Shown: positions 4,241-56,108 of the stretch, one piece after another
Layout: the number at the start of each line of letters is the position of its first letter
Position numbering within the stretch: position 1 is the first letter of the stretch
Notes under the pieces: generated by a model
Database searches by the model: none
The model's input: the letters and a program-made list of their open reading frames with translations, nothing else
What the model was told of the DNA's origin: nothing
NCBI GenBank assembly: GCA_948567375.1
Contig: OX419759.1
Span: 51,674,593 to 51,738,592, forward strand
Source: Lunularia cruciata
Taxonomy: Eukaryota > Streptophyta > Marchantiopsida > Lunulariales > Lunulariaceae
Reading direction: 5' to 3'
DNA length: 64,000 nt
Translations under genes and position numbers: made by a program

Positions 4241-4244
4241 TCTT

Positions 4245-5800
4245 TTACAACTTACTCCTCTAAACTCCTCCTTGTCCTTGACTTTGGTAGCTGTTTCTTT
4301 TTCTGGTGCCTTACCCCAAAGTCTTGATCTCTTTACCTTCAAATTTACTTCCTCCAAGCAGCTACTTTACTCAAGTTTGGTCCAAACTTGCGCATCACAG
4401 AAAAAGGCAAGGAGGTTGCCTCACTAGACTAGCCCACTTCTCTAAAAACTGCTTTCTTTGTCTTCCTCAGCTTGGCTTGGTCCTGCACTCACAAATTGTA
4501 AACTTCTTCTTAATCATACTCCCCTTTGGAATACTAGTCTTGGTTCTTCATCACATTCTTTTGGAATATTGACCTTAGGTAACTCCATGTATTGGATATC
4601 TCCTCCTTCTATGCATTCAATCTCATCATGAAACTCTTGATCTTCTTCCTCAACCACTTCTTCTATTGATTGTTGGACTTTAGGTTCTCCTTCATTTCCA
4701 TTGCTTGACTCCTTATTCTTTAGAATGAGCTCTTCTTCCTCAAAATCCCCATAATTGGATTTTTCCTCTACTTTCAACTCAATGCTTGACAACAAATCCA
4801 CCATTGCCGTCTTGTGTTTCAAGTTCAACTTTCAAGTTGTTCTTCTCTACATTTAGGAAACCATACCCTCAAGTTGACTTTGCTTCCTCAACCTTGGAAT
4901 GGTGACCGCCACAATCTTCACCTATCTATTTTTGGCAGAGTAGTCATTGCCTTCTCAAATCTCTCATGTAATATTGCTCATCTTTGTCTGGATCTTGACA
5001 AAGATCTGGTGAGACACCATCTTCTATTTCTCCTCCAAGCTAAGCAGGTTCAAACTTAAGTAAAGATGTGCCACAAATGGTATGAAATAATGAGGTGGTA
5101 TATTCATTCTCCAACTTCCAATCATTTGACTTATCCTTTGGTTAAACCACTTTGCAGAGTTCACCTTCTCTTTTGCAAACATTTGGTGAAAGAAAACCAC
5201 TTGCTACTTTGTCACATAGATGGTTTGCTCTAGCTTTAGCATTGCCATTAGAGACACAATGATACTTTACCTCATGAGGTCTTTGTAAGTGTCTACCTTG
5301 TACACATTCTTGGTGCAAGGTGCATTGAAGGTATTCTTCAATGCATCTCCATAGCATCACACTTCCTATAGAAGGTGGTTCTTGCCACATCTCCCATTGC
5401 TCTCTCCAATACAAGTCTCCAATCCAACTCAATCCATTGAGTTTGATTCCCTCTCTTTCCCTCCACCTCGAGACCATCTCTACAATTGTTGGTAATGATT
5501 TTTGCCATGAAACCTAGAATACTCAAATTCAGTTCTAGGCCAAAAATGTGATCCAAAGTCAGCTCAAGACTTTGATCCTCACTATCATATACCCAATTTG
5601 CAAATTGTAGGATTTTGCACTGCAAGTGACAAAACTTATGTTCTACACTTCATTGGAATTGTGCGCTCTTTACTTCATGGTTTCTTACAAATTCTTACAA
5701 ATGGCTACTTGGCTCATAAGTCTATCTCCTTTGGGACAACTCTTCAGAGGCATAGGTAATGCTTTGACATTGCAGAATTCAGTCAATGAAGTCTCAATTC
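4245..5800 (-). pseudogene. Family C ORF2 fragment (globular plus coiled-coil protein), decayed
   Basis: On the minus strand this repeats the start and middle of the protein found intact at 8072-9772. Shared landmarks are a W-x2-x-DW...TFYRKCDA block (5480-5350), a FFHQMFA stretch near 5170-5190, and an acidic segment at 4514-4828 that shares EEEELxLK and EGEPKVQQ with the better copy. A LRLWGKAP-like segment lies near 4320. Several stops and frame changes break it. It ends at the chromovirus LTR, so the C-terminal coiled coil and 3' LTR of this unit are missing. It has no similarity to a known enzyme that I can see. Confidence 0.7.
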
Positions 5801-6000
5801 TATTATTCTTTGATTCTCAATCATTCTTCAATTGACTATCAATTGCAACTCACTTATTCTACATGACTTGATTTTATCACTCTCAAATTTATCCTACTTA
5901 CGAAGTATTTTTGCTTAATGTACCTTCTTGATTGGTTCCGCCCAAGTAAAATTTGTTGAGGTTTCTTCAGATTAGGTTGATCATTTTGATGCAAAGTTCC

Positions 6001-7172
6001 TTACTTTGGGTCTACCATCCTTCGTGAAGCTCTTCGTCTTGGCTTTTTGCCTTTCTTCTCACGATTTCTTTGGTTACTGGACGAGTTGGAATGAGCAGCC
6101 TCATAGCGGGCACCATGTTTGAGGACTTTGTCCAGAGAGGTTACATTTCTTTCCCTGGCAAAGATACGAATCTCCGGTGAAAGCCCGCCAAGAAACCAGG
6201 TAATGGCTTGGGCATCGGAATAACCCACCACCCCGGATTGCTTCGGAACTCGGTTCAATAAGGCCATGAACCGCTCAGAGTAATCTCTCAATTTTTCCTT
6301 CTTTCCTCGGTCCAAATCATTAAGTGCCACGAAGACACTCGTATCATAATCCACTTCCCAAAATCGTTCCAAGAAGCCATTTTGTAAGTCTGCCCAGTCT
6401 GCTGGTGTAAATCCCTTCTGCGTTACATGAGTATACCAGCTCCGAGCCTTCTTTCAGAGCAGACTTGGAAAATCCACAGTCGATCCGCGGAGTTATGTTC
6501 CTTGTTGGCAAAGGAAATGACTTCGAATTCCTCAATGAATTTGTCAGGATCTTCGTCTTGCTGGTATCTTTATACTTTTGATAAGCATGTTGGGTCATGG
6601 GTACCGAGGACATTGTTCGGTGCGGCGGATTTGGGTGTGGTAAGTTTGAACTTACGGGGAACCGTAGAGCTACTTGGTATGGACGTCGTGTTGTCTGCCC
6701 ACGGGTTCCAATTTGTCAAGTTCAAATTGGGGTCTTCTTCAACAATTTCTTCTTCTCTGGTTGTGTCGACTTCAACCCGATCAGAAGTAAGAGGTTCCAC
6801 AACTTCAATCTGGTCTTCAAACCTTCTTTGGGATAACCTAGGAATTGTTTGTACCAGATGCTGACACTCTTCTTCCGTAAGTGTTCGGCCTGTCTTTTCT
6901 CAAACAAACTTCTTAATGAAATAGACTTCCTTTACAGCTTAAGGGGAAGTCGGGGTACTGGGTCATAGTGCGTATGTCTGCTCACTCAAGTCTTTCTTTT
7001 TCTTGGAAGACGGGGATGAAAAGTAGCCTTGCCAACCTCCTTCCCGTCTCTTTTGGTCAAGTTCATGCAAGGCTGCTTGCACTTCGTGAAGAAGTTGAAA
7101 GTCCAACTCTTCTAGTTTGATTTTGTTTGAAGTGTGTGGGGCTTTCAAACGTTCATCTTCTTCATGATGCAC
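6001..7172 (-). pseudogene. Family C gag (retrotransposon gag domain), frameshifted
   Basis: The best segment, 6372-6001, reads like a plant retrotransposon Gag core: FWEVDYDTSVFVALNDL, KLRDYSERFMALL, AITWFLGGLSPEIR. The preceding part of the domain (a DPDKFIEEFE-like stretch, then ANKEHNSA) is visible in other frames between 6613 and 6480. Short open pieces reach back to 7172, near the PBS. At least two frameshifts are needed to join the parts. No CCHC knuckle, protease or RT follows. Going on along the minus strand, about 170 non-coding bases lead straight into the ORF2 homology. Gag would form the cytoplasmic particle. Confidence 0.75.
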
Positions 7173-7284
7173 TGCTCATCTTCGAGCCCTCTCATCCCAT
7201 TGTTCTCTCGATGCAGACATTCATATTGCATGGACACCTAGTTTTGAATTTGGCTTTGTATTCTTCCACTTCCAAGATTTGTAT

Positions 7285-7303
7285 CCCCGGCAACGGCACC
7301 AAA
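7285..7303 (-). other. Primer binding site, tRNA-Asp type
   Basis: On the minus strand the sequence reads TGGTGCCGTTGCCGGGG, one base from the tRNA-Asp-complementary PBS (TGGCGCCGTTGCCGGGGA) of Athila/Tat-type elements. It lies 5 bp beyond the LTR end at 7309, as expected for minus-strand DNA priming. Confidence 0.8.
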
Positions 7304-7308
7304 AATCA

Positions 7309-8021
7309 TGTGACAACCCGGCAAATATCACTTTTGCGGTAATCGGGTCAGTAAAGTTTGTTCCCACAGAGATACTATCCAAAATTGGTCAAATATGAAG
7401 TCAAAAGTCACAATGGCAATTCTTCTTGATGGCTTCTTTAATCTCTCAGGTAGAAACTACACCCAAAAGAGAGTAACAAGCTCACAATCTTGATAACTTG
7501 TCACGAACACATACACATAATCACAACATAGCAAAGTCTGTCCAAACAACTCTTGATTGTGATGATTCAGATTCTCCCAAAGACGGCACTTCACTGCAAA
7601 GACCGATTTCACCATAGAATTGTGTTCCACCCCTCCACTGAAGGCACAACTTCCTCGATCAAAATTGCTTCACATCAACTTCGTGCTGCACTCACAAATG
7701 CAGAATACTAACAACACTACAATTCCTCTCAGACCTATCAAGGCATTGCTCCGATGCACTTCACTCAGGATCAAACACATAGAATGAAGATCAAGGCTGC
7801 AGATTCCAACATCCACAAACACATTGTCTTGCTCTTTGGAATTCTCCACACACTCACAAACACAAACACAAAATTGACAATATGAATTAAGCTTAAGCGA
7901 CGAGTATTGAAAACAATACTTCACTTTATCTATCTTCAGAAATTTTGAATACTGAATAACATTGTACTGCAAATGCTCCACTTAAATACTGAAGCAAACG
8001 GTAGACTTGCCTACCTAGGCA
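7309..8021 (-). repeat. Family C LTR shared by two tandem units
   Basis: In minus orientation it ends ...GGGTTGTCACA at 7309, exactly where similarity with the LTR ending at 56108 stops, and a PBS follows. The other end is set at TGCC (8021-8018), just after a purine-rich tract. A TTTAAG TATA-like box lies near 7980-7988. The LTR has ORF2 on its upstream side and PBS plus gag on its downstream side, so it acts as 3' LTR for one unit and 5' LTR for the next. Confidence 0.7.
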
Positions 8022-8071
8022 CCGCTTCCTACCATCTTCATATCTGACTCTTCCTATCTCAAAATTGACTT

Positions 8072-9772
8072 CTATCCCAATCCGATGTCTACCTCATCAT
8101 CGGCTTCCAAACCCAATGATCTTCTTACTATTTCACCTTCTTTGGGTATGACTGATTCTACTAATTTCTTCACAAATTCTACGACTTCTTCACTACAATC
8201 TCCAATTGAACTCACAGGTAATCTATCTACACTCTTATTTCCCGACCCACTCTTCTCTAATGTATCAATTTTCAAGTCCAATGATACTTGTATTCCTACT
8301 TCTGCAACATTGATTTTCTTCTCCACTGTCACACTAGTCCAAATTTTCTCTAACTCCAAATTGACTAAATCCAACCTAAGACTAACATTATTTTCTACCT
8401 CTAACATTTTCCTATCTACACGCTCTCTCAACCGAATCAGCAATGTGTTCATGTCCACGTCCTTGGCTTTCCGTTTCCGAGTCTCCTGCACAAGTAATTT
8501 CAACTCATGTAGGCGAGCTTCTTCCAATCTTCCCTCAGCCTCCGTGCTTAAGATTGCTCTTAACTTCCCCGCAACCTCTCCTACTGATTCTGATTCACAT
8601 CCTCGAGAGCGTTTTACCTTCAACTCCTCCCGATACATTTTCAACTCGTCTTTGTATTCTGCAGCAAGCATCTTCTTCTCCTTTGCATACTGCATACTCT
8701 GCTGTTCTGCGCTCTTAACAAGTTCTTGCAAACGCTCTTCTTCTTCTTGCCTAGACGCCAATTCTCTCTGCCATGCTTGATCTTTTGTTGCGGCACTCTT
8801 CTTCAAGCTGTCCAACTCCTGCTCCATCACGATGTTCATCGCCTTAAAATGGACATTCTTGATGCGCACATCACTCACTTCCACCTTCATTTTGCTCAGC
8901 CACATTGCATGCTCCTTCAATTCCCCTACTTGCTTTTGCAATTCCCTCTCCTTCTTTGCGCAGCTTCCTTGTAGCATGCTCAGCGTTTTCTTCCTCGAGT
9001 CTTCCTCCCTTTGAAGTTCCTCCACTTCCGCGCTTCTTTGGACTTGTTGTTCCTGCAACTCCTTCACTTCACTCACCAGATACTTCACCATCTGTAATTT
9101 GTTCATCCCCTCTCTGTGATCTTGGGGAATTACACTTCGATTCGCCTCTAACAGCTCCAGCAATGGTGTGACTATCTTCGTTAAATACGATATCCCAACA
9201 AAGTGTTCTTCTTCTTCCTTGCTATCTTCGTTTGGAGTCTTCTCCTCCATCATCGGCTCCTTCATCCAAAGTCGCAATCTTTGTATCTTCATTGTGTTGG
9301 CGCTGTCTTTGTTTTGGCCTCTTGAACTCGGCCCCGCGAGATTCTCTACCTCCTCCTCTAGTCTTGACATATTCTCCACCATCGCCTGACCAGCCTCACT
9401 TACTACCACCAATTGCTGGACTTTGGGTTCTCCCTCTCTATCGCTCCCAGACTCCTCACTTTTCAAGGTGAGCTCTTCTTCTTCCGAGTCCTCTACTTGC
9501 GACTCAGTTTCTTCTTCCGACTCCGATCCCGATGATGCCCTTCTTACGACTTTAGCAGTCTTCAACATCAGCCGCTGAGTCTTTCTTTGCATGGGAGACG
9601 CCTTAGCTTCTTCGGGTTTACTTCTCTTCTTTGTCTTTGGACTGGTAACATCTTTGATTTTCCACTGTCCCGTCCTTGCAAAGTACTCGTCATTTGCTTG
9701 CAGATGAAGCATATACTGGCGTTCCTCATTGTCTAATTCCTGTCTCAAATTGGGGTGCATGTGCGACACCAT
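8072..9772 (-). CDS. Family C ORF2 C-terminal part: 566-residue acidic, coiled-coil protein of unknown function
   Basis: This uninterrupted 566-codon frame holds, in order: a HLQANDEYFARTGQWKIKD segment (residues ~25-43), a basic stretch, an acidic low-complexity region (~80-115, SESEEETES type), and long heptad-rich segments rich in E, K, L and Q (~145-165 and ~200-400) that predict a coiled coil. The C-terminal region is RLHELKLLVQETRKRK followed by DMNTLLIRLRERVD. The first methionine is not the true start, because the homologous protein begins upstream in another frame (9726-10910). Related sequence occurs at 4245-5800 and 52820-55318. The stop lies about 50 bp before the LTR. I recognise no enzyme or zinc-finger motif. 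A structural or particle-associated role is conceivable but unsupported. Confidence 0.7.
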   Translation of the reverse strand: MVSHMHPNLRQELDNEERQYMLHLQANDEYFARTGQWKIKDVTSPKTKKRSKPEEAKASPMQRKTQRLMLKTAKVVRRASSGSESEEETESQVEDSEEEELTLKSEESGSDREGEPKVQQLVVVSEAGQAMVENMSRLEEEVENLAGPSSRGQNKDSANTMKIQRLRLWMKEPMMEEKTPNEDSKEEEEHFVGISYLTKIVTPLLELLEANRSVIPQDHREGMNKLQMVKYLVSEVKELQEQQVQRSAEVEELQREEDSRKKTLSMLQGSCAKKERELQKQVGELKEHAMWLSKMKVEVSDVRIKNVHFKAMNIVMEQELDSLKKSAATKDQAWQRELASRQEEEERLQELVKSAEQQSMQYAKEKKMLAAEYKDELKMYREELKVKRSRGCESESVGEVAGKLRAILSTEAEGRLEEARLHELKLLVQETRKRKAKDVDMNTLLIRLRERVDRKMLEVENNVSLRLDLVNLELEKIWTSVTVEKKINVAEVGIQVSLDLKIDTLEKSGSGNKSVDRLPVSSIGDCSEEVVEFVKKLVESVIPKEGEIVRRSLGLEADDEVDIGLG

Positions 9773-10910
9773 ATGATGATGTTGATAGTAAGTTCAGCCC
9801 AAAGTAGAAATGAGCTGCGAACGGTGCAAAATAATGCGGTGGCGAGCCCATTTGCCAATTCACCACCATCTGCCTTGTGCGATGATGGAAGCATCTCACC
9901 CAATTTACTGGTACTCCTGCAAACATCTGATGGAAAAAGACCGCCTGCTACATGGTCACGTAAGTCATTTGTTCTGGCTTGAACATGGCCATCATCACCC
10001 CCATGATACTTCTTTGGATCGGGTCCCGATATGATTCTACCTTGTAACCATTTGCGGTTCTTGAAGCAAAAAATGAGTTACGGATCTCCGCCGTCTCCTC
10101 TACAGCATCACACTTCCAATAGAAGGTGATCCTTGTCAGCTCTCCTGCTTCCCTCCCCAGGACTAACTTCCAATCCGACTCAGTCCATCGAGCCGGATTG
10201 CCTCTCTTCCCTTCCTCACAATTACTGGCAGCAATCTCTGCCATTACACCCGGGAAATTGAAATTCCAATTCCATGCTAAAAAGGTAATACGAAGTCTAA
10301 CCAAGACTTCGATTCTAGCTACTACATCCACTCTTCGAATTGCAAAACCTCTCACTGCCAGCGCGTTGGCCACCTTCTTCACCATGATTTATTCTCTCGT
10401 TCTACGTTGTTGGAAAATCAGACCCTCTCCTGGACAAGACACTCTAACTCCCTCAGGGTTCCGGAAAATCTCACTCTTGATGGGCTTTCGGACACGCATT
10501 ACTACAGGGCGACTACTCAAAGGAATTGGAAATTTACTTAGAGGTTTCAACTTCCTCCTACGCAATTGCAATTTTATATTGCCCCAAATCGCAGTCATTC
10601 TTCAGTTGATTTTGTCTATGAATTTCTCTCTTCTGCGTGCACTCCCGGTCACTATCAAGACATGCTTATTTTGCTCCCGCCATTTCTTGAAATGTACTTT
10701 CTTGCCACGTACAGAGGTTGTTAAACGGTCTTCATCTTTCCTGCGTCTTCCAACCCGAAGACAATGATCTTCGGCTTTTTTCCGGTGTACTCCTCTTCCG
10801 AGTACCTCCGTCATCAGATTTGATGTTAGCTTCTTCGGCTTCCTTCCAAAGTCACTTTTGCCACTTCTTTGTTTGCAATTCGACTGTTCCGTGCTTACTT
10901 CATCTCTCAA
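9726..10910 (-). pseudogene. Family C ORF2 N-terminal globular part, interrupted by three stops
   Basis: Four open segments (10910-10602, 10598-10389, 10385-9948, 9926-9726) all lie in the same minus-strand frame and are separated only by stops: TGA near 10602, TAA near 10389, TAG near 9948. A frame change of one then leads into the 566-codon frame at 8072-9772. The region starts basic and arginine/lysine-rich. It then has a conserved block WTESDWKLVLGREAGEL followed by ITFYWKCDA, and then the FFHQMFAGVPVNW block. The last two blocks are also present in the 5-kb and 53-kb copies. The function is unknown and no catalytic motif is seen. Confidence 0.65.
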
Positions 10911-11864
10911 TCACTACTAACCATAGAAAAAAACAAAAAATGTGGGTACCACATAGAGCAACATTAGAAATGTTGTAGTTACTGAAAGAAGTGCCTCAAA
11001 TGAAGAGGTACTTGAAGGAATGACATTGAAAGTTAGGATGGGAGAAGCACTTGAAGTGATGCAAGATAATCCCAAGTACTTGCAAGCCAACCTACTTGTA
11101 GGATGTTCAACACTCGGAGTGATGTAGGATGATCCCAAATGCTAGCATGAAGGATGTGTCTATAGGCCAAATGATTTGCATGACCAAGTATCAAGGTAGA
11201 AAGAAAAGTTGTGTCACAAAGGAGGATGAGAAACACTCATTGAGGTGTAGAATGAACATGAGTGCTTAAGGAGTAAATACCACACCAAGTCTTGTGGAAT
11301 CATTCTAAATGCTTGTAGGAGATGCAACACTCACATTGCCAATAGGTGAGGTGTACAAGCCTAAGTTTTGAATGCCACTTTGGCACTTGGACTTAAGTGC
11401 CACTGTGATTTGAATGTGCCAACAACAACACTTGCCGCCAAGCATTGTTACCTACAAGATAGCTATTACCACTTGGTAGGCAAGTGTGGCATAGGGGAAA
11501 GTGATTAGAAATAAATTTTTGGCACATGAGAGGGTGAATCTTCACTAAGATTGACATGTGTAGGCCTCCGCATGCATAATGACAAGTGCCTACCCACTAT
11601 GTTACTGCCAAAGTACTAAAGAATGACCATGAATTGAGTACATAAGTTGAGTGCTTGGCTAGAAGTGGCACTTCTCACAAACCCATCTGCCTTCTAAGCT
11701 GATTGAGTAGTGTCTTGTGCATTTTCATAAAGAAGTGAGTTACTTGGAGTCATTTTGAGAGTGGCACTTGGCACAATTTTGGATACTCAAAGTGAAGTGA
11801 GGTACTCAACATAATATGTAAGTGAAGTTGTAGTAGTTTTTCTTGTGCAAAAGCCATGATGATC
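10911..11864 (+). other. No gene seen; transposon-derived spacer
   Basis: No long or recognisable reading frame occurs on either strand. Recurrent words such as GCCACTTGGCAC and GCACTTG suggest LTR or leader sequence of an unidentified element. For the family C unit at 8072-10910, the gag expected upstream (higher coordinates, minus strand) is not present here. Confidence 0.5.
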
Positions 11865-26936: not shown

Positions 26937-29170
26937 GGTCACTCCAAAACTTACAAGAAGGCACATGATGCCATCCTTGGATCCAATGCTATCAAAAAGC
27001 TAGTAGTGTACTACAGAATGGAAGTGATTAGAAGTAAGTCCATGGGATGCCTTCTTTAGAACTAGGAGTTGTCAAATTTCCATATGATATATGAGACAAG
27101 GGGCAAACAAGAGAGAACTTCAAGGGGAATGAGAGGTTTTCCATGATTTGGAAAAGAGACCACCAAAAAATGGTACTTGGTTCAAATGCTTAAGTTGTAG
27201 GAGCAATGACCATAAATAGCAAAAAAGAACTTACCTCCAAAGTCAAGAGCCACTTCAATAGCAAATTTCCAAAAATAATTGGTGGAGTGTGGTCAATTAC
27301 AAGGATCTTGCACAAAGAGCCATTTTAAAAGCAACTACAAAGCTCTTTAAACAAAAAAGAACCACCTACTTGACCAATGGCCAAGTTTTATTCTTTGATT
27401 ACATGTACCCAAGAGAGCATATAAATCTGGCAGAAATGTTTGATAAATAGTGCAAGTTCTTACATCAAGATTTTGAGGATGAATGAGGTGCCACCTACAT
27501 TGATTTGTTTCCTATGCATTACTTCACTGAGACCAATCTATTTATGAAGGAAGTGAGTAAGAGTTTTCCCACACATTTCTATCTTATAAGTTATTTCAAA
27601 TCATAACCTGAAGAATCCACCAAAACTGCTAAGTATTGGTTGGCCAATGCTGAGTTTGCAAAGATAGTCCAATTCATGCATGTAGATGAAGAATTGGCCT
27701 TGCCAAAGGCTCCAAAGAGGAAGAATACAACACCAAAGAAAAAGCCACTTCCCCTAGCAAAGAATTTAAAGGACATGGCACAGGTTGTTGAAGTATCCTC
27801 TTCAAATGATGAGGCCAAGGCCACTAAAGTAGATGAAGATGATGATAAAGAGGAGCAAGGATTCTTCACTCTACAAGGATCAACCTCCACTTCAAGAGAC
27901 AAAGACAAAGGAGAAGAAACCTAGGAAGACTCCTAGTCTATTCCACATGTGCAAGACCAAGATATGGACAAGTGCCCTGTGGATGAAGAAGAGCACATGA
28001 CGGAAGAAGCGGCAGTGTTAGAGCATGCACATTGAGTCTACTTGTGGAGGAAGAAAAAGCCATAATAGAGATTCAAGATCTTGCAGAGTGCTCAAAGGAC
28101 TTTGACCAAAAAGGGAGAAGGAGGTTGAGGACTACACAAAAGAAGAAGATCACATTACAGATAATGCCAAAGAAGAGGAGGAGATTGACATTGTGACTGA
28201 TAGTCAAGAGGCTACACCAAAAGTGTGGATTGAAGTGCAAGAGGCACCACCTAGTTCTAAGTCAGTGTAGGTGCAAGAAGGATCAAGCTTCATCATTCAT
28301 TTGGTTGGCACTACATTGCATTTGATGGAGGTGTTGCTGCCCCTGTACCAAGCCAACTGCCTTGATGTAGTAGACTACATTTGATCAGAGCTATACATAA
28401 CCAGATCTACACTTGGAAGGCCAAAGAAGACCTAGTAAAAGACAAAGCAACAAAAGTCAAAGATTTGTAAAAGGCAAAGGCTTCAAACATAACTGCCTTG
28501 ATGTAGGAGAACAAAGACTCAAGAGGAAAAAGATGAACAAGATCACCAAGCAACAAATATCCAAATTTTTGAAGGGGATTGGAAGGCACTCCGCCTTGAG
28601 CTTGATTAGTTTAAGAAGGAAGTTGAAGACCAACTTCACAGCAAGTGCCAAGAATTGGAGAGCACTTGGGGTGCTTTGAAGGAGAAACATGGCCAAGTAG
28701 TAACTCTAGAGATGTAGGAGTCCCAAAAGGAAGTATTAGTGCAACTAGAACATCTCACCAAGGAGGAAAAAGAAGAGAGAGTCAAGCATGCAAGAAATCT
28801 CCAGGTGTTGGAAGATAAAAGGCCAAATGAGGCATTCAAAAAAAGTAGATGGAAGAGGATCAGCTGAAGGCATTGCACCAACTAGAGGAGACCCAAGCCT
28901 TGTTCATGGATATGCTTAAAGAAGAAAGAGAAATGCATGCCTTGAGAACCAAACAATATGAACTAAAGATGAAGGTCAAATGCTTATAAACCCATGCCTA
29001 TGACAAAGAATGAATGACCAACCTATCCTTGCACTTGAAGGAGCACCTAGATAAGCAGTTCAATGAAGTGTGCTAGACCTTCTTGTTGGAGATAGGTAGG
29101 TATTAGGTATAGACATACTAACCAATAAGATATCTAAGAGGTGAACAAAGTCCTTCATCCCCAGTGGTTT
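26937..29170 (+). pseudogene. Divergent family C-like ORF2 (charged, coiled-coil protein), decayed
   Basis: The + strand translation, through several stops, shows a globular start (VLFFDYMYP near 27385-27410, then IDLFPMHYF near 27500-27525), the open segment 27640-27924 (KAPKRKNTTPKKKPLP basic linker, then an acidic S/E/D-rich stretch), and Lys/Glu-rich heptad-like sequence from 28030 to 29060. The architecture resembles the family C ORF2, and family C-like LTR sequence follows at 30270-31030. Residue identity to the other copies is low. No known domain is recognised. Confidence 0.5.
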
Positions 29171-37191: not shown

Positions 37192-37883
37192 TGTGAGCCG
37201 GCCTGTCTCTCACTCAGGATGAACCTCTGATGGCTATTATGGTAGCGCACCATGGACTAAGAAGGCAAGGAACCCCAACTCCATCATACTCCTCCAAGGC
37301 TAACACTCCAAGACTCAAGACATTGCTCACTAGAGAACTCAATGAGAGAGAGATAGTTGCAAATGAAAGGATGATGAGTACCTCCTCACTCCTTGTTTAT
37401 ATACTTGTGAAATAGTTACGTACCAAAGTTACTAATTACCGTAGTAACTCAAGTTACTAGACTAAAAGTCAAGTAAAGTCAAAAAGTAGAAAGGAATATC
37501 CATTCACATGGGCATATTCCCCTAAGCATGTGGTCTTATCTTGACCCAACCACTAAAGCAAGGATTCCTTCACATGGGCTATCCTTGGACTAAAGAAGAA
37601 TCCAAAACAAAAAGGCTTGCGGGCCCAAGAGTTCTCAACTCTTTCCCCAAAGCCAAACACCTAGGAATAATACCAAGTCAACACACTAAAATCCAAAATA
37701 GTGGTGCTCATCTTTTCTACTTCCTCTAAAGTAAGGTCCCATCTATCTTAGCTATGACTAACTTTAGCTAACCATGACTAATATAGAACCATCCTTTATC
37801 TCTATATAAATAATATCTCTTAAGTACTTGTAATACCAAGCTAAATATCACAATACCACACACATGCACAAATGGGTGTTACA
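37192..37883 (-). repeat. 3' LTR of young A element
   Basis: 692 bp. In sense (minus) orientation it is TGTAACACCC...GCCGGCTCACA. A TATTTATATAG box lies near 37800-37812 on the minus strand and would start transcription towards lower coordinates. It differs from the 5' LTR only at 37731. Confidence 0.96.
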
Positions 37884-37898
37884 TTTACCCCCGGACTA
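37884..37898 (-). other. Polypurine tract of young A element
   Basis: On the minus strand TAGTCCGGGGGTAAA abuts the 3' LTR (TGTAACACC). It is the expected primer site for plus-strand DNA synthesis. Confidence 0.85.
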
Positions 37899-37931
37899 AG
37901 TTTTCACTTTGTCCTCAAAGTGAAGGTCTCT

Positions 37932-40900
37932 CTACCTTCTATGGTACATCTTCAACTTATCATGGTTAATCCTATCAAAGTGTCTTCCTCCCAACTCCTT
38001 GAGATCATAAGTGTAATTTCCCCACACCTTCTCTACTATGAAAGGTCCAAAGTACTTAGGCAAAAACTTCTTTTGTACTCTCTTGAATCGAATGGAATCA
38101 AACAACATTACCCAATCACCTTCTTTGAAAGGCTCCACCTTCTTCTTGCCTTGCCTCTTGTCATAGCTCTCCTTTTGTTTCCTTTGGGCTTGCTCCACTC
38201 GAACCATAGCAACTGCTCTTGCCTCTTCCAACTCCATGAGTTGATCCTTCCTTGACTTCTCTGCATCACTTCCTTGTGCTTTCTTCAATCTCCTATGAAT
38301 GCTTTGGAAGGTAGGAAGATCAAAGTGAATAGGTAAGGTAGACTCAATACCATACACCAATTGGAATGGAGAATATCCAGTGGAAGTCTTCATGGTTGTC
38401 CTATACTCCCACAAAACTGCATGAATCCTCTTGTCCCAATGATGTTTAGCCCCCTCCATTTCTGCATCTTTGGCCAACATCATGCACAAGGTCTGATTGG
38501 TTCTCTCTGCCAAGCCATTGGAATTTGGCTTATAGGATGTAGTTACTCTATGTGTGATAGAGAAATGTCGTAGCATGGCTGTAGTAATGCTTCCTGTAAA
38601 CTCTCCTCCTCTATCAGAAACCAACTCCAAAGGGCATCCAAACCTAGTGATAATGCGTTCATAAAGAAATCTACCCACTTCATCTTCATTCTTGTCCCTC
38701 AATGGTCTAGCCTCAACCCACTTGGTAAGGTAATCAGTAACTACCACAATGTACCGATTGTTCCTTGGGGTTCTATTGAGAGGTCCTACAAAATCAATTC
38801 CCCACTTCTCAAAGGGTCCTAGCAATGGAATTGATCTAAGTGGTGGAGTGGATGTAGACTTTCTAGCAAAAGCTTGACAAACATGACAAGTTTTGCAATA
38901 ATCAAGACAATCCTTGAAAATCCCTCTCCAATGGTAACCTGCATCTAGAATCTTGAAAGCAGTCACCTTTCCTGCAAAGTGTCCTCCACATACTAAACCT
39001 TCATGAAACTCCTTTATGAGTAGGATAGACTCTTCCTTACCCACTGCTCTTCGAAGTAGACCATCTGCTCCTTGGTGAAAAAGAATATCATCCACCATTG
39101 TGTAAGGTCTAGATCTTGCTGCAAGGGCCTTCCTCTCCCTAGCATGCATCCCTTCTGGATAGTTACCTCTTGTCACAAAATCCACAATCTCCTTGTACTC
39201 CATTGGAACCTCTTGAGTGACTGAGATTGTCATGAGCTCCTCATCCGGGAAGGAATCATCTACTGGCTCATCTCCATCATGATCATAGGCTCTAGATAAC
39301 AAATCAGCATTTGCATGTTTCTTTCCTGGCCTATCCTCAATTGTGTAGTCATACTTAGACAAGAGAATCATCCACCTTGCTAGTCTCCCTTCAACATTAG
39401 GCTTGTTGAAGATGTACTTCAAAGCCTTGTGATCCGTGACAATTGTGGCTTTCCCTCCAATCAAGTAGTGTCTAAACTTCTTGAGACCAAAGATCACTGC
39501 CAACCCTTCTCTCTCTGTGACAGAGTAGTTCTTCTCTGCTGAAACCATCTGCCTACTAGCATAAGCTATTGGATGATCATGCCCATCTTGGTCTAATTGA
39601 CTAAGAGTGCATCCTATAGCTACATTAGAAGCATCAGTGTAGAGGATGAAAGGCTTACTCCAATCAGGTTTAGCAAGAATTGGAGCTACAACAAGGGATT
39701 GCTTGAGCTCCTCAAAAGCTTTGAGAGCCTCCTTGTCTTCCAAAATCACCATGTAATCTACACCCTTCTTCATGTAGATGGTCAATGCATAAGCCTTGTT
39801 GGAAAATGAGAAGATGAACCTCCTATAGTACCCAACCATTCCCAAGAATTGGCGTAACTTTGTCAAGCTTGAAGGGAATGGAAGGTCTGAGATTTTCCTC
39901 ACCTTCTCAGGATCAACTGCTATTCCATCCTTGGAGATGATGTGCCCCAAAAGTAGACCTTCTTCACATCCAAAAATGCACTTCTCTGGGTTGAGTGATG
40001 CATTTGCCTCATCCAAGCGTTGCAAGACTTTGATTAGGTGCTCAAAGTGCTCCTCCTTGCTCCCATAGACACAAAAGTCATCAATGAAATCTCTCACAAA
40101 TTTCCCAATGAAAGGTTCAAATACCTTGTTCATGAACCGTTGGAATGTGGCTGGAGCATTGCAAAGCCCAAAAGGCATGACCTTGAAACCGTAAGTTCCC
40201 CAAGGTGTGGTGAATGTGGTGAGTTGTTGATGCTCTGGTGCAATCTTTATTTGGTTATATCCACTATAACCATCTCCAAAACTGTACCTCTCATGACCTG
40301 CAACCTCCTCCAAGATCTCATCAATGAATGGCAATGGGTAGTAGTCCTTCTTGGTAACAGCATTAAGCTTCTTGTAATCCACACATACCCGAAGCTTGCC
40401 ATTCTTTTTCTTCACAATGACAATTGGAGACACCCATTCTGAATTCTCCACCTCAAAGATAAATCCAGCCTCCTTGAGCTTATCAATCTCCTCCTTCACA
40501 ACCAAAGATATTGGTGGGCTAATGCGACGTTGCTTTTGGCGGATTGGTCTTGCATGTGACTCCACCTCTATCTTGTGCTCCTCCAAGGTGACTTCCTTCA
40601 AATCCTTGTAACTAAAAGCAAACACATGGATGAACTTGCGGAAAATCTCCTCAAATCTCACCTTCTCCTCCTTGGTAACATTTGGGCCATACTTGAGGGT
40701 AGATAACCTTCTCTCTACCTCCTCAAGTGTCAATGGTGATTTATCTGGGTCCTTCAAAACCTTTGGCTTAGGTGCAAAATCTATAGCACACAAGGGATAC
40801 ACATCTGAATCAGATTCAGATTCATCCTCCTCCGTGGAAGTCTCCTCTTCCATGCTTGTGTCCACACCTGAAGCTCCTTCTTCAGAATCTAATTCCCAAT

Positions 40901-42758
40901 AATTAGAAGATGGGGTATCTGAATGTGAAGTGTTGGTGGTGTTAGTCACAGGAACAGTGACTCTATGGTTTGATGGCCCAATCCTCAAGTACCCTTTGTG
41001 CCATCGATTAGTTGTGCGTGCTGCTCTCAACCATGGCCTCCCAAGAAGTAAGTCATAGCTTGAATCCTTCAAGACTTGGAAAGTCATGAGATTTTGAACT
41101 CCCATAACTGAAACTACCACCTTATCCATCACCCCTACTGGTCGAACTTGTTGCTTGTTTGCCATGCTCACCACAAATGTTGAAGGTCTTGAGGGTATCA
41201 TACCCAACTTCTTCATCAACCTTTCTGACATGGCATTCACTGCTGATCCTCCATCAACCAATGCATCCTTGATGTTGTGACCATTCACTCTCACATCAAT
41301 CTTGGAGGCATATTCACAAGCCTCCCATGGTGCTGGCTTGGCATCCACCACCCCCATTGATACTGGAACTTTTGCCTTCTTCTTCTTTTTGCTCCTTGTA
41401 GAACTCAAACCACCTCTAAGCTCCTTTCTCAAGGTAGGGTTCAAAGCAATTAATTGGCCCACTGTGATGTTAGCCTTGTGACTACCAACATCCTCCAACA
41501 CATTGTAGTTCCATTGTTGCTTTGAGATCAAGAAGTCCTCCATCCCCAACTTCTTTCTTGGAGTCTTTGTTGTTGATGGTGTTGAGGTGCGAGTGCTCCT
41601 AGTAGACATAGGAGTATCCTTGCTTGAAGTAAATCCTTGAGAAGAGTGAACATCCTCTGCAAAACGAGCTCTCTTCTTCTCTTGTGCCAAAAGCTCCAAA
41701 TTAAGACCCTTGGAGTTTGAGCACTCTCCCTTCTCATACTTGCTCTCAACCACATCTATGGATGCTATCCCCTTACCTTTGTTGGGATTAGGAGCCACTT
41801 GGGTTTCACTACCTCCCTCTTTCCCTCTATTGGCTCCCTCATAACCCCTTCCTCCATGGTAAGTGGAATTTGGGCAATTCCTTTGGATATGGCCTCTTCC
41901 TCCACAACCAAAACAATTTCTATCATTGAAATTGTTGGCTGGTTGGCCTCCTCTATATGGATAGTTTCCATAACTCCTAGGTCCTCTCCCTACATTCTGA
42001 TCCACCTCTCTCTTCTCCCATAGTTGCACCACATTGATCTTGAGATCCGCAAGTTGTTCTGTGATGGTTTGGAGTGGATCTTTTGGTGGAGGTGCAAGAA
42101 CTGGAGCAACTACTACTTGTGGTGCAACCCTTGTCACCAAAGTATCAGAAGTTCCACCATACTTGTAGCCTTGAGGAGGATGCACAACCTCCTTCACCAC
42201 CAAATCACTCTCATCCCCTTCCAAACTCTCCTCCATACGAATTGCGATCTTGATAGCTTCAACCTTGGAAGAAGGTTTCTCATATCTCACCTTGCTTCTA
42301 ATTTGTGGTCTCAATCCTCCCACAAAATTCTTGGTGAGCATAGCCCCTATGCCAATCATTGTAGTCTCCACATCATCCCCACCCTTCCTCAACACTATGC
42401 GAAATCTGGACTCCAACTTTTCCACTCTTTCCACATAGACCCTCACTTTCTCTCCATCTCCTTGCTTGAGAAATGTAACCTCACTCATCAATCTCTCATA
42501 ACTCTCATCAGGAAGAAAGTTCTCAATGAGTGCTGAAGTCAAAGTCTCCCAAGACTCCTCTTCCCCCTCTCTCCTCTCTCTCTTTTGGTATTCTGACTCA
42601 TACCATGTAAGTGCTGCATCCTCAAAGAAATCTGGTAATAATGAGGCCCACTCATTCTTCCTCCTCTCATTGTTTCCTATGCAAGCTCTCTTGAAGTCTC
42701 TCACAAAGGCCTCCACATCTTCTCCATCCTTGCCAAAGAAAACCGGAAGTTTCCCCAT
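37932..42758 (-). CDS. gag-pol: Gag-Pol polyprotein of young A element (1608 residues)
   Basis: One unbroken frame encodes, in order: Gag core (~1-270), CCHC knuckle C282-x2-C285-x4-H290-x4-C295, a low-complexity linker (~320-400), protease (~485-580, active-site VDGG with D502, and LLGRPWL at 571-577), RT (~755-935, GDGYSGYNQI, MPFGLCNAPATF, catalytic FIDD at 891-894), RNase H (~1036-1155, DAS with D1042, TEREGL, TDHKAL), and integrase (~1245-1605). Integrase has its zinc-binding H/C cluster, then D1322, D1382 and E1418, giving D,D-35-E spacing, and a C-terminal GPF segment. There is no chromodomain. The start at 42758 follows a purine-rich leader and has a Gag-like MGKLPVFFG beginning. The product would assemble particles, copy the RNA and integrate the cDNA. 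All catalytic residues are kept, so the element could be active. Confidence 0.95.
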   Translation of the reverse strand: MGKLPVFFGKDGEDVEAFVRDFKRACIGNNERRKNEWASLLPDFFEDAALTWYESEYQKRERREGEEESWETLTSALIENFLPDESYERLMSEVTFLKQGDGEKVRVYVERVEKLESRFRIVLRKGGDDVETTMIGIGAMLTKNFVGGLRPQIRSKVRYEKPSSKVEAIKIAIRMEESLEGDESDLVVKEVVHPPQGYKYGGTSDTLVTRVAPQVVVAPVLAPPPKDPLQTITEQLADLKINVVQLWEKREVDQNVGRGPRSYGNYPYRGGQPANNFNDRNCFGCGGRGHIQRNCPNSTYHGGRGYEGANRGKEGGSETQVAPNPNKGKGIASIDVVESKYEKGECSNSKGLNLELLAQEKKRARFAEDVHSSQGFTSSKDTPMSTRSTRTSTPSTTKTPRKKLGMEDFLISKQQWNYNVLEDVGSHKANITVGQLIALNPTLRKELRGGLSSTRSKKKKKAKVPVSMGVVDAKPAPWEACEYASKIDVRVNGHNIKDALVDGGSAVNAMSERLMKKLGMIPSRPSTFVVSMANKQQVRPVGVMDKVVVSVMGVQNLMTFQVLKDSSYDLLLGRPWLRAARTTNRWHKGYLRIGPSNHRVTVPVTNTTNTSHSDTPSSNYWELDSEEGASGVDTSMEEETSTEEDESESDSDVYPLCAIDFAPKPKVLKDPDKSPLTLEEVERRLSTLKYGPNVTKEEKVRFEEIFRKFIHVFAFSYKDLKEVTLEEHKIEVESHARPIRQKQRRISPPISLVVKEEIDKLKEAGFIFEVENSEWVSPIVIVKKKNGKLRVCVDYKKLNAVTKKDYYPLPFIDEILEEVAGHERYSFGDGYSGYNQIKIAPEHQQLTTFTTPWGTYGFKVMPFGLCNAPATFQRFMNKVFEPFIGKFVRDFIDDFCVYGSKEEHFEHLIKVLQRLDEANASLNPEKCIFGCEEGLLLGHIISKDGIAVDPEKVRKISDLPFPSSLTKLRQFLGMVGYYRRFIFSFSNKAYALTIYMKKGVDYMVILEDKEALKAFEELKQSLVVAPILAKPDWSKPFILYTDASNVAIGCTLSQLDQDGHDHPIAYASRQMVSAEKNYSVTEREGLAVIFGLKKFRHYLIGGKATIVTDHKALKYIFNKPNVEGRLARWMILLSKYDYTIEDRPGKKHANADLLSRAYDHDGDEPVDDSFPDEELMTISVTQEVPMEYKEIVDFVTRGNYPEGMHARERKALAARSRPYTMVDDILFHQGADGLLRRAVGKEESILLIKEFHEGLVCGGHFAGKVTAFKILDAGYHWRGIFKDCLDYCKTCHVCQAFARKSTSTPPLRSIPLLGPFEKWGIDFVGPLNRTPRNNRYIVVVTDYLTKWVEARPLRDKNEDEVGRFLYERIITRFGCPLELVSDRGGEFTGSITTAMLRHFSITHRVTTSYKPNSNGLAERTNQTLCMMLAKDAEMEGAKHHWDKRIHAVLWEYRTTMKTSTGYSPFQLVYGIESTLPIHFDLPTFQSIHRRLKKAQGSDAEKSRKDQLMELEEARAVAMVRVEQAQRKQKESYDKRQGKKKVEPFKEGDWVMLFDSIRFKRVQKKFLPKYFGPFIVEKVWGNYTYDLKELGGRHFDRINHDKLKMYHRR

Positions 42759-42763
42759 CTTAA

Positions 42764-42850
42764 CCCCTCACTATCTTTCTTTTCTCTTAATTTTTTTCTT
42801 TTTTCTTTTTTCTTTTCTCTCACTCTATTACTAATAGAGTATATACATGA
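42764..42850 (-). promoter_or_regulatory. Purine-rich leader just upstream of gag-pol start
   Basis: On the sense (minus) strand about 60 nt before the ATG are nearly all A and G (AAAAGAAAAG-type runs, then GATAGTGAGGGGTTAAG). A similar tract sits before the gag start of the old copy (24690-24745). A role in translation of a downstream ORF is speculation. Confidence 0.4.
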
Positions 42851-42997
42851 CTAACACCATCTGAGAATAATCCACTCTAGGGAACACAAAAGGTTCAGGT
42901 TGCTCCAAGATTTCTATAGCAACATCAAATCCTAGAGTGCATATTAATCTAACTCTCATGGATAGTTTATCCATAAGTTGAAAGATTATCTCCATCA

Positions 42998-43495
42998 CTA
43001 ATCTTGAGAACTAGCTGATGAAGGTGGTAGTATTTCTGTAGCTGTACTAAGACTCTCTCCAAGATCCTTCACCAAAGTTTCCAAAAGTGCTTTTACTCCA
43101 CTACACTCATGTCCTTTTGGAAGTCCTTCAACTCCACAAACCTCACACAACTCCTTGGTCTTAGATCTTCTCCCTCCCAATCTTGGTGAAGAAGGTCCAA
43201 CATGCAAACCCAAGTCAAGTAAGCCTCTCCTTTCCCTCAATCTCTTGCTCTCAAAGGTTAATGGACATGAACTTGCCTTATGTCCCTTCTCTCCACATAG
43301 AAAGCACTTAGACTCACTCTTTCCTCCAAGTGGTGTAGGTTTTTGGATCCTCTCAACACTCTCTTCAAATTCTATTGTAAACTCTCTTTTCCTCAAATCC
43401 ACCCCTACAATCACCTCAAACCCTTGGGGAACCTTGCATAATCTCAATTTCCACTTTTGATGACCCTCCATGTTCCCAAAGATGAATCTAAACAC
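42998..43495 (-). CDS. ORF1 upstream of gag: small protein with CCHC knuckle plus second Cys/His cluster
   Basis: A 165-codon frame lies between PBS and gag on the same strand. Residues ~63-76 read CFLCGEKGHKASSC, a perfect C-x2-C-x4-H-x4-C knuckle. About 40 residues later CEVCGVEGLPKGHEC adds another C-x2-C...H-x-C cluster. The N-terminal part (WKLRLCKVPQGFEVIVGV) could be a small beta-rich domain, and more of it may be encoded upstream in another frame (43632-43444). Extra ORFs before gag are known in Ogre/Tat elements. Whether this one is homologous is unknown. Nucleic-acid binding is inferred from the knuckle. A decayed copy is at 24940-25400. Confidence 0.65.
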   Translation of the reverse strand: MFRFIFGNMEGHQKWKLRLCKVPQGFEVIVGVDLRKREFTIEFEESVERIQKPTPLGGKSESKCFLCGEKGHKASSCPLTFESKRLRERRGLLDLGLHVGPSSPRLGGRRSKTKELCEVCGVEGLPKGHECSGVKALLETLVKDLGESLSTATEILPPSSASSQD

Positions 43496-44119
43496 TCAAA
43501 CATGCTTTTTGTTGATCTCAAACTTCTCATGCATGAGATCTCCACTCTGCAGAATTGACCCTTCCTCACAATGTCACTCAAATCTCCCAACGAATATGTC
43601 ACAGTCCTCTGAAATTTTCCACACTTGATCACAACTCTAGGGCGTCCCTCCCTGCAAAATTTTAGATCTTTTCATCGAGCCATTTGGCCTAGACACCTTT
43701 CTATTCAGCACCCATATTTCAGATTTGGTCTGAAAACCACCCCCCTCACTTCAAAAACTCATAACGCACTGCACAAAAATGATCTCTCTCTAATTTTTGT
43801 GGCACCAGGTAGGATACAATGCACTGAATTTTCTTGGAAATTTTCAGGATAATTCACTGAAAATTGAAGAAATGGCAGACTCTGTACAATTTTCTAGAGA
43901 GCATGCAGTTGCGGGAGCACTTTACCCTATCAACTTTCAAAAATTCTAGCCCAGTGCGCATAGAAGCTCTCTCAATAATTTCAAGTGTGCTAACTGAAAG
44001 ATAACCCAAGCTATCATGTGTAGAAATCTCAAGTCCAGATCTCAAACTTGAGATTTTGCCCAAAATCACCTTAATCCCCAAAATCTGCAATCCACCTCAC
44101 ACAATCTCTCCAATTCCTC

Positions 44120-44290
44120 TCATGTGTACAAGATGTACAAAATCACTTCAAAGACATCATAATGAACTACAGGGTATACAAATGGATCTTGGTTCTCTAA
44201 CATAAGTTCAGCCCTCTCCTCTCCTAATGTTCTCTCCAAGTGAGCTCTCATAGCCTCCTTCTGCCTAATGTAGAATTGGACGCGGAACAT
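44120..44290 (-). CDS. Small leader ORF (56 codons) after the PBS
   Basis: The first ATG after the PBS (44290) opens a 56-codon frame starting MFRVQFYIRQKEAMRAHLER and ending near VILYILYT. The N-terminal half is amphipathic and charged. The old copy conserves much of it (MFCVQFYIR, then MRAHVERTLG), with a stop and several changes. It may be an upstream regulatory ORF or the first exon of ORF1. I recognise no domain. Confidence 0.4.
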   Translation of the reverse strand: MFRVQFYIRQKEAMRAHLERTLGEERAELMLENQDPFVYPVVHYDVFEVILYILYT

Positions 44291-44309
44291 TATCTTGCCT
44301 TCTAGAGAG

Positions 44310-44328
44310 GTCCCGGCAACGGAACCAA
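44310..44328 (-). other. Primer binding site of young A element
   Basis: On the minus strand TTGGTTCCGTTGCCGGGA starts 3 bp after the LTR end at 44332. It resembles the tRNA-Asp-type site TGGCGCCGTTGCCGGGGA, with differences near its beginning and one G fewer at the end. The same position in the old copy is a decayed version of it. Confidence 0.75.
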
Positions 44329-44331
44329 AAA

Positions 44332-45023
44332 TGTGAGCCGGCCTGTCTCTCACTCAGGATGAACCTCTGATGGCTATTATGGTAGCGCACCATGGACTAA
44401 GAAGGCAAGGAACCCCAACTCCATCATACTCCTCCAAGGCTAACACTCCAAGACTCAAGACATTGCTCACTAGAGAACTCAATGAGAGAGAGATAGTTGC
44501 AAATGAAAGGATGATGAGTACCTCCTCACTCCTTGTTTATATACTTGTGAAATAGTTACGTACCAAAGTTACTAATTACCGTAGTAACTCAAGTTACTAG
44601 ACTAAAAGTCAAGTAAAGTCAAAAAGTAGAAAGGAATATCCATTCACATGGGCATATTCCCCTAAGCATGTGGTCTTATCTTGACCCAACCACTAAAGCA
44701 AGGATTCCTTCACATGGGCTATCCTTGGACTAAAGAAGAATCCAAAACAAAAAGGCTTGCGGGCCCAAGAGTTCTCAACTCTTTCCCCAAAGCCAAACAC
44801 CTAGGAATAATACCAAGTCAACACACTAAAATCCAAAATAGTGGTGCTCATCTTTTCTACTTCCTCTAAATTAAGGTCCCATCTATCTTAGCTATGACTA
44901 ACTTTAGCTAACCATGACTAATATAGAACCATCCTTTATCTCTATATAAATAATATCTCTTAAGTACTTGTAATACCAAGCTAAATATCACAATACCACA
45001 CACATGCACAAATGGGTGTTACA
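44332..45023 (-). repeat. 5' LTR of young A element
   Basis: 692 bp, identical to the 3' LTR except for t at 44871. It has the same TATTTATATAG box (minus strand, near 44940-44952), which would drive transcription of the element. Confidence 0.96.
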
Positions 45024-55364: not shown

Positions 55365-56108
55365 TGACACTTTGGATCTGCGACTTTGGAAGTAGTAGTT
55401 GAAGCGGTTTAGGTAGCTTAGATCACTATTGAATGTTCATTCTATTCAAAGGAAGCATTTATAGTCTTATGTTTCAATATTATAATTTCAAAGTTGAGTA
55501 AAGTGAAGTGATGCAACTCAATGCTTGATATTTTAATTTAATTTTGAGTATCAATCCTTGTATGTGTGTTTATGAGTGCTTGGAAGTTCTAATTGCAATT
55601 TGAGTGTGTTAAATGTTGGATTCTATAGCTCTAATTTCCATTTTTTGTGTTTGATCTTGAGCAAGTAGCAATCAAAGCAATGCCTTGATGAATTTGTGAG
55701 GAAGTGTAGTGTTGGTAGTATCTTGCAATTGTGATTGCAATGTTGGATTGATGCAAAGCAACTTTGATTGAGGAAGTTGTGCCTTCAGTGGAGGTAGAAC
55801 ACAATTCCAAGGCAAAGTCACTTTGTTGTGAAGTAGCCTTCTTTGTAAGAACTGAATCATCACATTCAATATTAATTTAGAAAGGATTTGAAGAATTGTG
55901 AAGTATTGTTAATTTGTGACAAGATTGCAAGTTGATCACTTGTTACTCTCTTTTGGGTGTGGTTTCTACCCAAGAGGCTAAAGACACAACCAAGAAGAAT
56001 TGTTTGTTATGGTTTACTTTGTATTTGACTATTTTTGACTTGTATTTATGTGAGAACAAAAAAATAATTATTGATTATTGCAAAAGTGATACTTGCTGGG
56101 TTGTCACA
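55365..56108 (+). repeat. 3' LTR of family C copy 3
   Basis: Begins TGACAC after a purine tract (GATATGAAGAAGTAGAG) and ends GGGTTGTCACA at 56108. It is collinear with the minus-strand LTR at 7309-8021, including AGGAAGTTGTGCCTTCAGTG near 55780 and CTCTTTTGGGTG near 55948. The sequence after 56108 is unrelated, with no PBS, which marks the true LTR end. Confidence 0.75.

What the first reader, a model, noticed from the sequence alone, without database searches (positions are those of the whole stretch)
4245..10910. A pol-less LTR element family with gag and a long coiled-coil ORF2
Family C units show LTR, tRNA-Asp-type PBS, gag (6001-7172) and then, about 170 bp later, a second ORF of roughly 950 codons with a conserved globular N-terminal part and an acidic coiled-coil C-terminal part. 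No protease, RT, RNase H or integrase lies between or after them. The same ORF2 recurs at 52820-55318 and a divergent relative at 26937-29170, each next to a matching LTR. Seen directly: order, LTR ends, repeated protein blocks. Inferred: mobilisation in trans, perhaps by tRNA-Asp-primed elements such as family A. Gag-only elements are known in plants. A gag plus large coiled-coil protein design is not one I recognise.
Basis: partly seen in the sequence, partly recalled or inferred. Interest (0 to 1): 0.75.

Follow-up and report, generated by a model that had tools for sequence, protein, structure and literature searches.

The report
Plant retrotransposon lacking its own enzymes
Old, broken copies of a plant jumping gene that encoded its own capsid protein and a second, long rod-like protein, but no copying enzymes, so it probably borrowed those from other elements; such elements are known in Arabidopsis and wheat, but this second protein matches nothing we could find.

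Summary
The core observation holds, with corrections. On the minus strand, LTR-C (7309 to about 8029), a tRNA-Asp-type primer site (7284-7301) and a Ty3-type gag (ending 6001) are followed by ORF2; no pol domain was found. ORF2 recurs at 10385-8072 (-) and 52893-55318 (+), both running into LTR-C. A 26-27% relative lies at 27235-28986 (+), without LTR-C. No full-length copy is in the window: the layout is composite, each junction seen in two copies (one of them with only 26 bp of gag). All four ORF2 copies are broken. Codon-position tests show that ORF2 was under purifying selection (omega about 0.23-0.26; LTR control flat) from about 10388: some 770 codons, not 950. Its C-terminal half models as long helices after an acidic linker. 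The N-terminal block matched no Pfam family and nothing in two protein searches. The layout is known: pol-less Athila elements with gag plus env-like ORF (Arabidopsis), and RLG_Quinta with GAG plus an unknown domain (wheat). Most likely this is the same strategy, probably in a liverwort, with an undescribed accessory protein. Family A as helper is weakly supported: similar primer type and Gag domain, but a different exact primer site and unrelated LTRs.

The parts
7309..8029 (-). LTR of family C; its 3' end at 7309 (..GTCACA) is clear, its 5' end (about 8029) is my estimate. It serves as 3' LTR of the ORF2b unit and as 5' LTR of the gag-ORF2a unit
   Evidence: 72% identical to 55443-56106 (query 7311-8029, of which bases 42-719 aligned); similarity stops right after the GTCACA(T) end
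7284..7301 (-). primer binding site, tRNA-Asp type, 7 nt after the LTR end
   Evidence: 1 mismatch in 18 to the recalled tRNA-Asp complement
6001..7220 (-). gag, broken; capsid piece 6004-6453; basic C-terminal tail; no CCHC knuckle in the four pieces scanned; start at 7220 chosen by eye
   Evidence: Pfam Retrotrans_gag 1.1e-9, Ty3_capsid 5e-8 on 6004-6453; frames
5650..6000 (-). spacer between gag and ORF2 in unit a, no codon-position signal
   Evidence: a-c differences 0.27/0.26/0.23 by position over 5660-6000; a-c identity 276 of 363 over 5660-6026
4250..5650 (-). ORF2 copy a, truncated at about 4250, many stops and shifts
   Evidence: alignment; codon-position test
8072..10385 (-). ORF2 copy b: N-terminal block 9753-10385 (one TAG, then a frameshift near 9773-9790) and open C-terminal part 8072-9772 (566 aa)
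   Evidence: helices
52523..52548 (+). remnant of the gag tail with its stop in front of ORF2 copy c; the rest of gag is missing there
   Evidence: 23 of 26 bases match 6026-6001
52893..55318 (+). ORF2 copy c, decayed
55443..56108 (+). 3' LTR of copy c (LTR-C); 5' end as far as blastn aligned it
27235..28986 (+). ORF2 copy d, divergent relative of the second half of the N-block; acidic linker and helical-looking tail behind it judged by eye only; not bounded by LTR-C
   Evidence: blastp 26-27% identity, E 5e-9 / 1e-7 / 1e-5; frames
37192..45023 (-). family A, intact-looking Ty3-type element (LTRs 99.86% identical, 4-bp repeat GTCC on both sides, gag-pol ORF 37932-42758): possible but weakly supported helper

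Best explanation
Family C is an old, pol-less (non-autonomous) Ty3-type LTR retrotransposon family of a land plant, probably a liverwort. It encoded its own Gag and a second accessory protein, ORF2 (about 770 aa: N-terminal block, acidic linker, long helical rod). Its RNA would be packed into particles made with its own Gag, reverse-transcribed from a tRNA-Asp-type primer and integrated by enzymes supplied by a pol-bearing element. ORF2 most likely acts on the element's own RNA or particle (assembly or localisation), which would explain why selection kept it in an element that had given up pol. Shown: order of parts (composite), no pol found, ORF2 repeats, past purifying selection on ORF2. Inferred: borrowing of enzymes, particle role of ORF2, identity of the helper, host group.
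For: Each pol-less junction is present in two diverged copies: gag tail to ORF2 in a and c (26 bp of gag in c, 23 matching; then a shared spacer; 276 of 363 columns identical in all) and ORF2 to LTR in b and c (98 of 161 columns). The layout therefore predates copies that differ at 40% (a-c) and 55% (b-c) of third codon positions, so it is not a recent deletion. Omega 0.257 (b-c, 712 codons), 0.232 (b-a, 317), 0.242 (a-c, 298), after dropping 22, 10 and 19 codons with a stop. LTR control flat. For pol-less and other Athila families the table passage in PMC2410132 gives omega 0.19-0.30 for env and 0.19-0.38 for gag. The C part is predicted as helices 182-210, 220-294, 299-390, 397-491; ten-residue pLDDT means 50-81 from residue 221 to 480, lower outside; single sequence.
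Against: No complete copy; the layout is put together from three broken copies, and the gag side of the junction in c is 26 bp. gag is otherwise seen in one copy, so selection on gag is untested. The a and b halves share one LTR, which could be a tandem or recombinant structure. The codon signal is patchy. The heptad count (69 of 539 windows; shuffles mean 22.6, maximum 71) is suggestive only. The host genome could not be searched.
Confidence: 0.66

Rival explanations
1. ORF2 is the 3' extra ORF of an autonomous gag-pol-ORF2 family (Athila-like), and the copies here descend from one old deletion of pol; pol-bearing sisters exist elsewhere in the genome.
For: Athila elements carry such ORFs after pol (PMC6317226 and PMC11728184, passages). 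A Tripterygium gene model, P0011, has RT and integrase domains, a Transposase_32 piece (46.9 bits, cut-off 45, only profile positions 2-42 of 177) and a coiled-coil match below its cut-off (26.7 against 40) in one protein; that P0011 is Athila-like is my inference.
Against: Two pol-less copies differ at 40% of third positions and share the junction; no family A pol match inside the stretches that hold the four ORF2 copies, though a distant or fully decayed pol could be missed.
Confidence: 0.18
2. ORF2 is an envelope-like protein that lets the element leave the cell.
For: Position after gag and helical rod; 'env-like' is the usual label for such ORFs in Athila (PMC2410132, passages).
Against: No 19-residue stretch reaches a Kyte-Doolittle mean of 1.6 (maxima 0.41-1.54 in the seven ORF2 pieces tested; the C-terminal parts of a, c and d were not tested).
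Confidence: 0.05
3. ORF2 is a host gene family or another mobile element's gene that happens to lie next to gag and LTR remnants (nested insertions).
For: Copy d lies outside any LTR-C element; the region is full of nested elements; gag proper is seen with ORF2 in one copy only.
Against: The gag-tail/spacer/ORF2 junction and the ORF2/LTR junction each recur in two diverged copies.
Confidence: 0.06
4. Within the pol-less reading: ORF2 helps by countering host silencing or by steering the element to the nucleus, rather than by building particles.
For: A basic stretch at about residues 38-78 of the C part of copy b (18 basic against 9 acidic in residues 1-80); an Athila 3' extra ORF in sunflower is predicted nuclear (PMC11728184, section 2.5 read).
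Against: No homology to any described protein was found; the rod suits a structural role; by eye the basic stretch is not clearly kept in a and c.
Confidence: 0.2

Closest known systems
Pol-less Athila elements of Arabidopsis, LTRs plus gag and env ORFs (PMC2410132; passages and the Discussion read)
   Same: LTR - gag - second ORF - LTR with no pol; gag and env under purifying selection there, ORF2 here; similar omega; recombination between families; proposed mobilisation in trans
   Different: The ORF2 N-block matches neither PF03078 nor PF20167 here; probably a different plant group; whether family C belongs to the Athila lineage is not established because it has no pol to place
RLG_Quinta with RLG_Cereba, wheat (PMC11302176; passages read)
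   Same: Non-autonomous Ty3-type element that encodes GAG plus a domain of unknown function and lacks RT and INT
   Different: Quinta has a partner with identical PBS and LTR termini; here no such partner was found in the window; ORF2 here is a separate, long ORF, while Quinta's domain is in the gag ORF
[quoted passage not shown] PF20167; PMC6317226 passages, PMC11728184 passages and section 2.5)
   Same: Additional protein outside gag-pol; in the Tripterygium model P0011 a weak coiled-coil match stands behind a Transposase_32 piece
   Different: Those described sit in elements with pol; no Pfam match for ORF2 here
Diaspora and Calypso, tRNA-Asp-primed Athila relatives of soybean (PMC1142308, passages read)
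   Same: tRNA-Asp primer site a few bases after the LTR (5 there, 7 here)
   Different: Diaspora has gag-pol and no extra ORF, the mirror image of family C

Membership tests
LTR retrotransposon (Ty3-type) | LTR followed by a tRNA primer site | tested here: met
LTR retrotransposon (Ty3-type) | Ty3-type Gag capsid domain | tested here: met
   PF03732 1.1e-9, PF19259 5e-8
LTR retrotransposon (Ty3-type) | two LTRs and target-site repeat in one copy | tested here: inconclusive
   no copy with both its own LTRs in the window
Non-autonomous, pol-less element with coding ORFs (Athila/Quinta strategy) | no protease, RT, RNase H or integrase between gag, ORF2 and LTR | tested here: met
   composite of three copies
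Non-autonomous, pol-less element with coding ORFs (Athila/Quinta strategy) | retained ORF under purifying selection | tested here: met
   ORF2 only; gag is in one copy and could not be tested
Non-autonomous, pol-less element with coding ORFs (Athila/Quinta strategy) | autonomous partner with identical PBS and LTR termini | tested here: inconclusive
   not met by family A, the only other tRNA-Asp-type primer site in the window: 15 of 18 positions, LTR end TCACA shared, no LTR similarity; the rest of the genome could not be searched
Athila lineage | pol phylogeny within Athila | not testable with these tools
   family C has no pol
Athila lineage | extra ORF with PF03078 or PF20167 | tested here: not met
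   no such hit up to E 10 for the read-through N-block or its pieces; HMMER filters can drop very weak matches
Envelope-like protein | transmembrane segment | tested here: inconclusive
   no 19-residue window reaches 1.6; maxima 0.41-1.54 in seven pieces of decayed copies

The most novel reading that the evidence does not exclude
ORF2 is a new class of retroelement accessory protein that made possible a long-lived lineage of structural-protein-only elements: they carry capsid plus a rod protein that favours their own RNA, borrow enzymes from others, and have split into at least two families (C and the relative at 27235-28986) in an early land-plant genome.
Probability: 0.25. Interest if true: 0.6.

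Novelty: new variant of a known kind. Interest (0 to 1): 0.38.

Why it matters
It would extend the pol-less gag-plus-second-ORF strategy, described in Arabidopsis and wheat, to what is probably a liverwort, with a second protein of no recognisable kin. If such elements keep a non-enzymatic protein under selection for a long time, that protein probably works in cis on its own RNA or particle, which can be tested. It also adds an apparently undescribed protein family to the poorly understood extra ORFs of plant retrotransposons.

Tried and rejected
Pfam scans of ORF2 pieces and of the read-through N-block gave nothing credible: the only matches were YqhG on the C part (E 0.036, 13.5 bits, cut-off 25) and Phage_terminase on a piece of copy d (E 0.12); none for the N-block of a, b or c. 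The protein search with P0001 (394 aa, about 175 of them upstream of the constrained part; length limits about 217-690 aa) had 4366 candidates, none at E 0.01 or better. The search with P0127 residues 1-205 (length limits about 424-1348 aa) had 946 candidates, none at E 0.1 or better. The same collection holds plant proteins: among the 120 rows listed of 3910 matches, family A pol has its highest identity, 82% over 81% of the region, with a Marchantia polymorpha protein (P0010), 74% with an unnamed one (P0007), and 53% or less with the others, which include Riccia, a second Marchantia protein and proteins labelled PITA, which I take as Pinus taeda from recall. So the silence for ORF2 means something, though transposon ORFs are often left out of annotations. 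One viral contig scan with six peptide patterns found nothing. The AlphaFold model of the N-block (6 aligned rows) is unusable, mean pLDDT 36.7, so I made no fold search. I noted by eye a likeness of the N-block pattern to Transposase_32 proteins; that is recalled and failed the Pfam test. Considered and rejected: copy d as part of a family A LTR element. The flanking family A LTRs run opposite to ORF d, I take the left one as the 5' LTR of the older A copy that starts at 12831, and no tRNA-Asp-type primer site stands next to 26936 or 29171. The lineage of family A was not settled; I made no tree. On checking I moved the LTR end from 7311 to 7309 and the gag remnant of copy c to 52523-52548 (26 bp); because that junction is thinner than I first wrote, I lowered the main confidence from 0.70 to 0.66 and raised the first rival from 0.15 to 0.18.
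Full report
What was checked. The window is repeat-rich, with nested LTR elements. Family A pol (37935-42758, minus; residues 700-1300 searched) is 82% identical over 81% of that region to a Marchantia polymorpha protein, the highest identity among the 120 rows listed of 3910 matches; an unnamed protein has 74% and the others listed 53% or less. A liverwort or near relative is therefore the likely source; this is an inference.

Anatomy. LTR-C ends at 7309 (..GTCACA, minus strand). Its capsid piece 6004-6453 matches Pfam Retrotrans_gag at 1.1e-9 and Ty3_capsid at 5e-8; the other three gag pieces gave nothing credible, and no CCHC knuckle was found in the four. The tail is basic. The frame is broken several times. 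About 350 bp later ORF2 copy a begins; it is cut off at about 4250. On the other side of the same LTR, ORF2 copy b (10385-8072) runs into LTR-C. On the plus strand, ORF2 copy c (52893-55318) runs into another LTR-C (55443-56108); in front of it stand only 26 bp of gag tail (52523-52548, 23 of 26 bases as in unit a), then the spacer.

Why the layout is credible, and how far. No single copy is complete. The gag-tail, spacer and ORF2 junction is present in a and c (276 of 363 columns identical over 6026-5660, most of it spacer), and the ORF2 to LTR junction in b and c (98 of 161 columns over 8150-7990). Read-throughs of 4199-6000, 10389-11863 and 50001-52499 in three sense frames each gave no pol domain. 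tblastn of the family A polyprotein finds the divergent elements at 1105-3257, 20354-23316 and 33691-35642 but nothing inside 4245-10910, 26937-29170 or 52500-56110; in the other direction, the family C capsid piece hits family A Gag at 26% identity, E 4e-5.

ORF2 was a real gene. Differences by codon position, in the frame of copy b, are 294/751, 252/749, 407/747 for b-c (chi2 66.8); 110/338, 115/337, 185/338 for b-a (42.8); 80/330, 81/329, 130/329 for a-c (24.0). The LTR read the same way is flat (0.0, 0.3, 0.3). Upstream, 10605-10800 is flat (0.04 and 0.18), while 10392-10604 leans the same way without being significant (b-c 3.18, b-a 0.6), so the exact start is open. NG86 omega is 0.257, 0.232 and 0.242 over 712, 317 and 298 codons; 22, 10 and 19 codons with a stop were dropped first. 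Against the reading: the signal is patchy. For b-c it is weak at 10245-10385 and 8240-8360, absent at 9480-9640, level with first positions at 8600-8740, and lost at 8075-8240; the a-c block 5342-5655, inside ORF2a, is flat. Synonymous sites are near saturation (Ks 1 to 1.9), so omega is rough. The open run of 573 codons in b compares with a maximum of 226 in 2000 first-order Markov shuffles.

ORF2 protein. An N-terminal block of about 210 residues is shared by a, b and c, and its second half by d; identities to copy b are 38-56% for the a and c pieces and 23% for d over the multiple alignment. Then an acidic linker (23 acidic against 6 basic in residues 81-160 of the C part), then helices predicted over residues 182-491 with three short breaks (single sequence, mean pLDDT 55.9 overall, ten-residue means 50-81 from 221 to 480). 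The heptad count is above the shuffled mean but inside the shuffled range (69 of 539 windows; mean 22.6, maximum 71 in 500 shuffles). I call it a probable coiled-coil rod, not a proven one. No membrane-span-like stretch was found in the seven pieces tested.

No relatives by sequence. Pfam: nothing credible. Protein collection: none at E 0.01 among 4366 candidates, none at E 0.1 among 946, the two searches covering different length ranges. The N-block model is too poor for a fold search.

Copy d and the LTR claim. Copy d is homologous (best E 5e-9, 1e-7, 1e-5 to a, b, c) but stands between family A LTRs: I take 26245-26936 as the 5' LTR of the minus-strand A copy that starts at 12831, and 29171-29862 as a separate family A LTR. 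Both run opposite to ORF d, and the window-wide scan found no tRNA-Asp-type primer site at either edge. LTR-C has two long matches in the window (itself and 55443-56106) and a 43-bp piece at 30764-30806.

Mechanism. Published pol-less Athila elements (PMC2410132; passages and the Discussion read) have LTRs plus gag and env ORFs under purifying selection and are argued to be mobilised in trans. RLG_Quinta (PMC11302176; passages read) has GAG plus an unknown domain and a partner with identical primer site and LTR termini. Family C fits this strategy. Family A has the only open gag-pol ORF of that length in the window but fails those partner criteria: primer sites agree at 15 of 18 positions, spacing is 4 against 7 bases, the LTR ends share TCACA, the LTRs are otherwise unrelated. 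A closer helper elsewhere is more likely. Why ORF2 was kept is inferred: a protein kept by selection on an element without enzymes should favour its own RNA, so a role in particle or RNA assembly is my first choice, with silencing or nuclear targeting second.

Novelty. The layout is known; the ORF2 sequence family appears undescribed. My searches for prior reports were in one open-access library, so a report elsewhere is not excluded.

Noticed in passing
37192-45023: Intact-looking family A element: LTRs 99.86% identical, GTCC on both sides, one 1608-aa gag-pol ORF; probably a recent insertion.
   Followed up: partly
42998-43495: A separate 165-aa ORF with a CCHC knuckle (PF00098, E 1.6e-4) lies upstream of the family A gag-pol ORF and is also present in the older copy (24916-25395, 85% identity).
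   Followed up: no
16167-24368: Repeats of about 150-156 bp sit inside repeats of about 720-750 bp (16167-16914, 23651-24368, partial 18721-19197) around a plus-strand Ty3-type element nested in an older family A copy; probably LTRs with internal tandem units.
   Followed up: partly
11864-13829: Family A LTR plus about 300 bp of internal sequence stands twice in tandem, 89% identical.
   Followed up: no
56110-64000: Sharp drop to 26-30% GC against 35-45% in the rest of the window; no Rfam match in the window and no ORF of 150 aa there.
   Followed up: no
51800-52150: Ty1/copia-like RNase H remnant, recognised by eye from a recalled motif, just upstream of ORF2 copy c; Pfam did not confirm it.
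   Followed up: no
3913-4117: 60-bp tandem repeat, 3.4 copies, right at the left edge of the finding.
   Followed up: no
8072-10385, 4250-5650, 52893-55318: Copy a is closer to c than to b, although a and b share one LTR: suggests recombination or tandem structure between subfamilies.
   Followed up: partly
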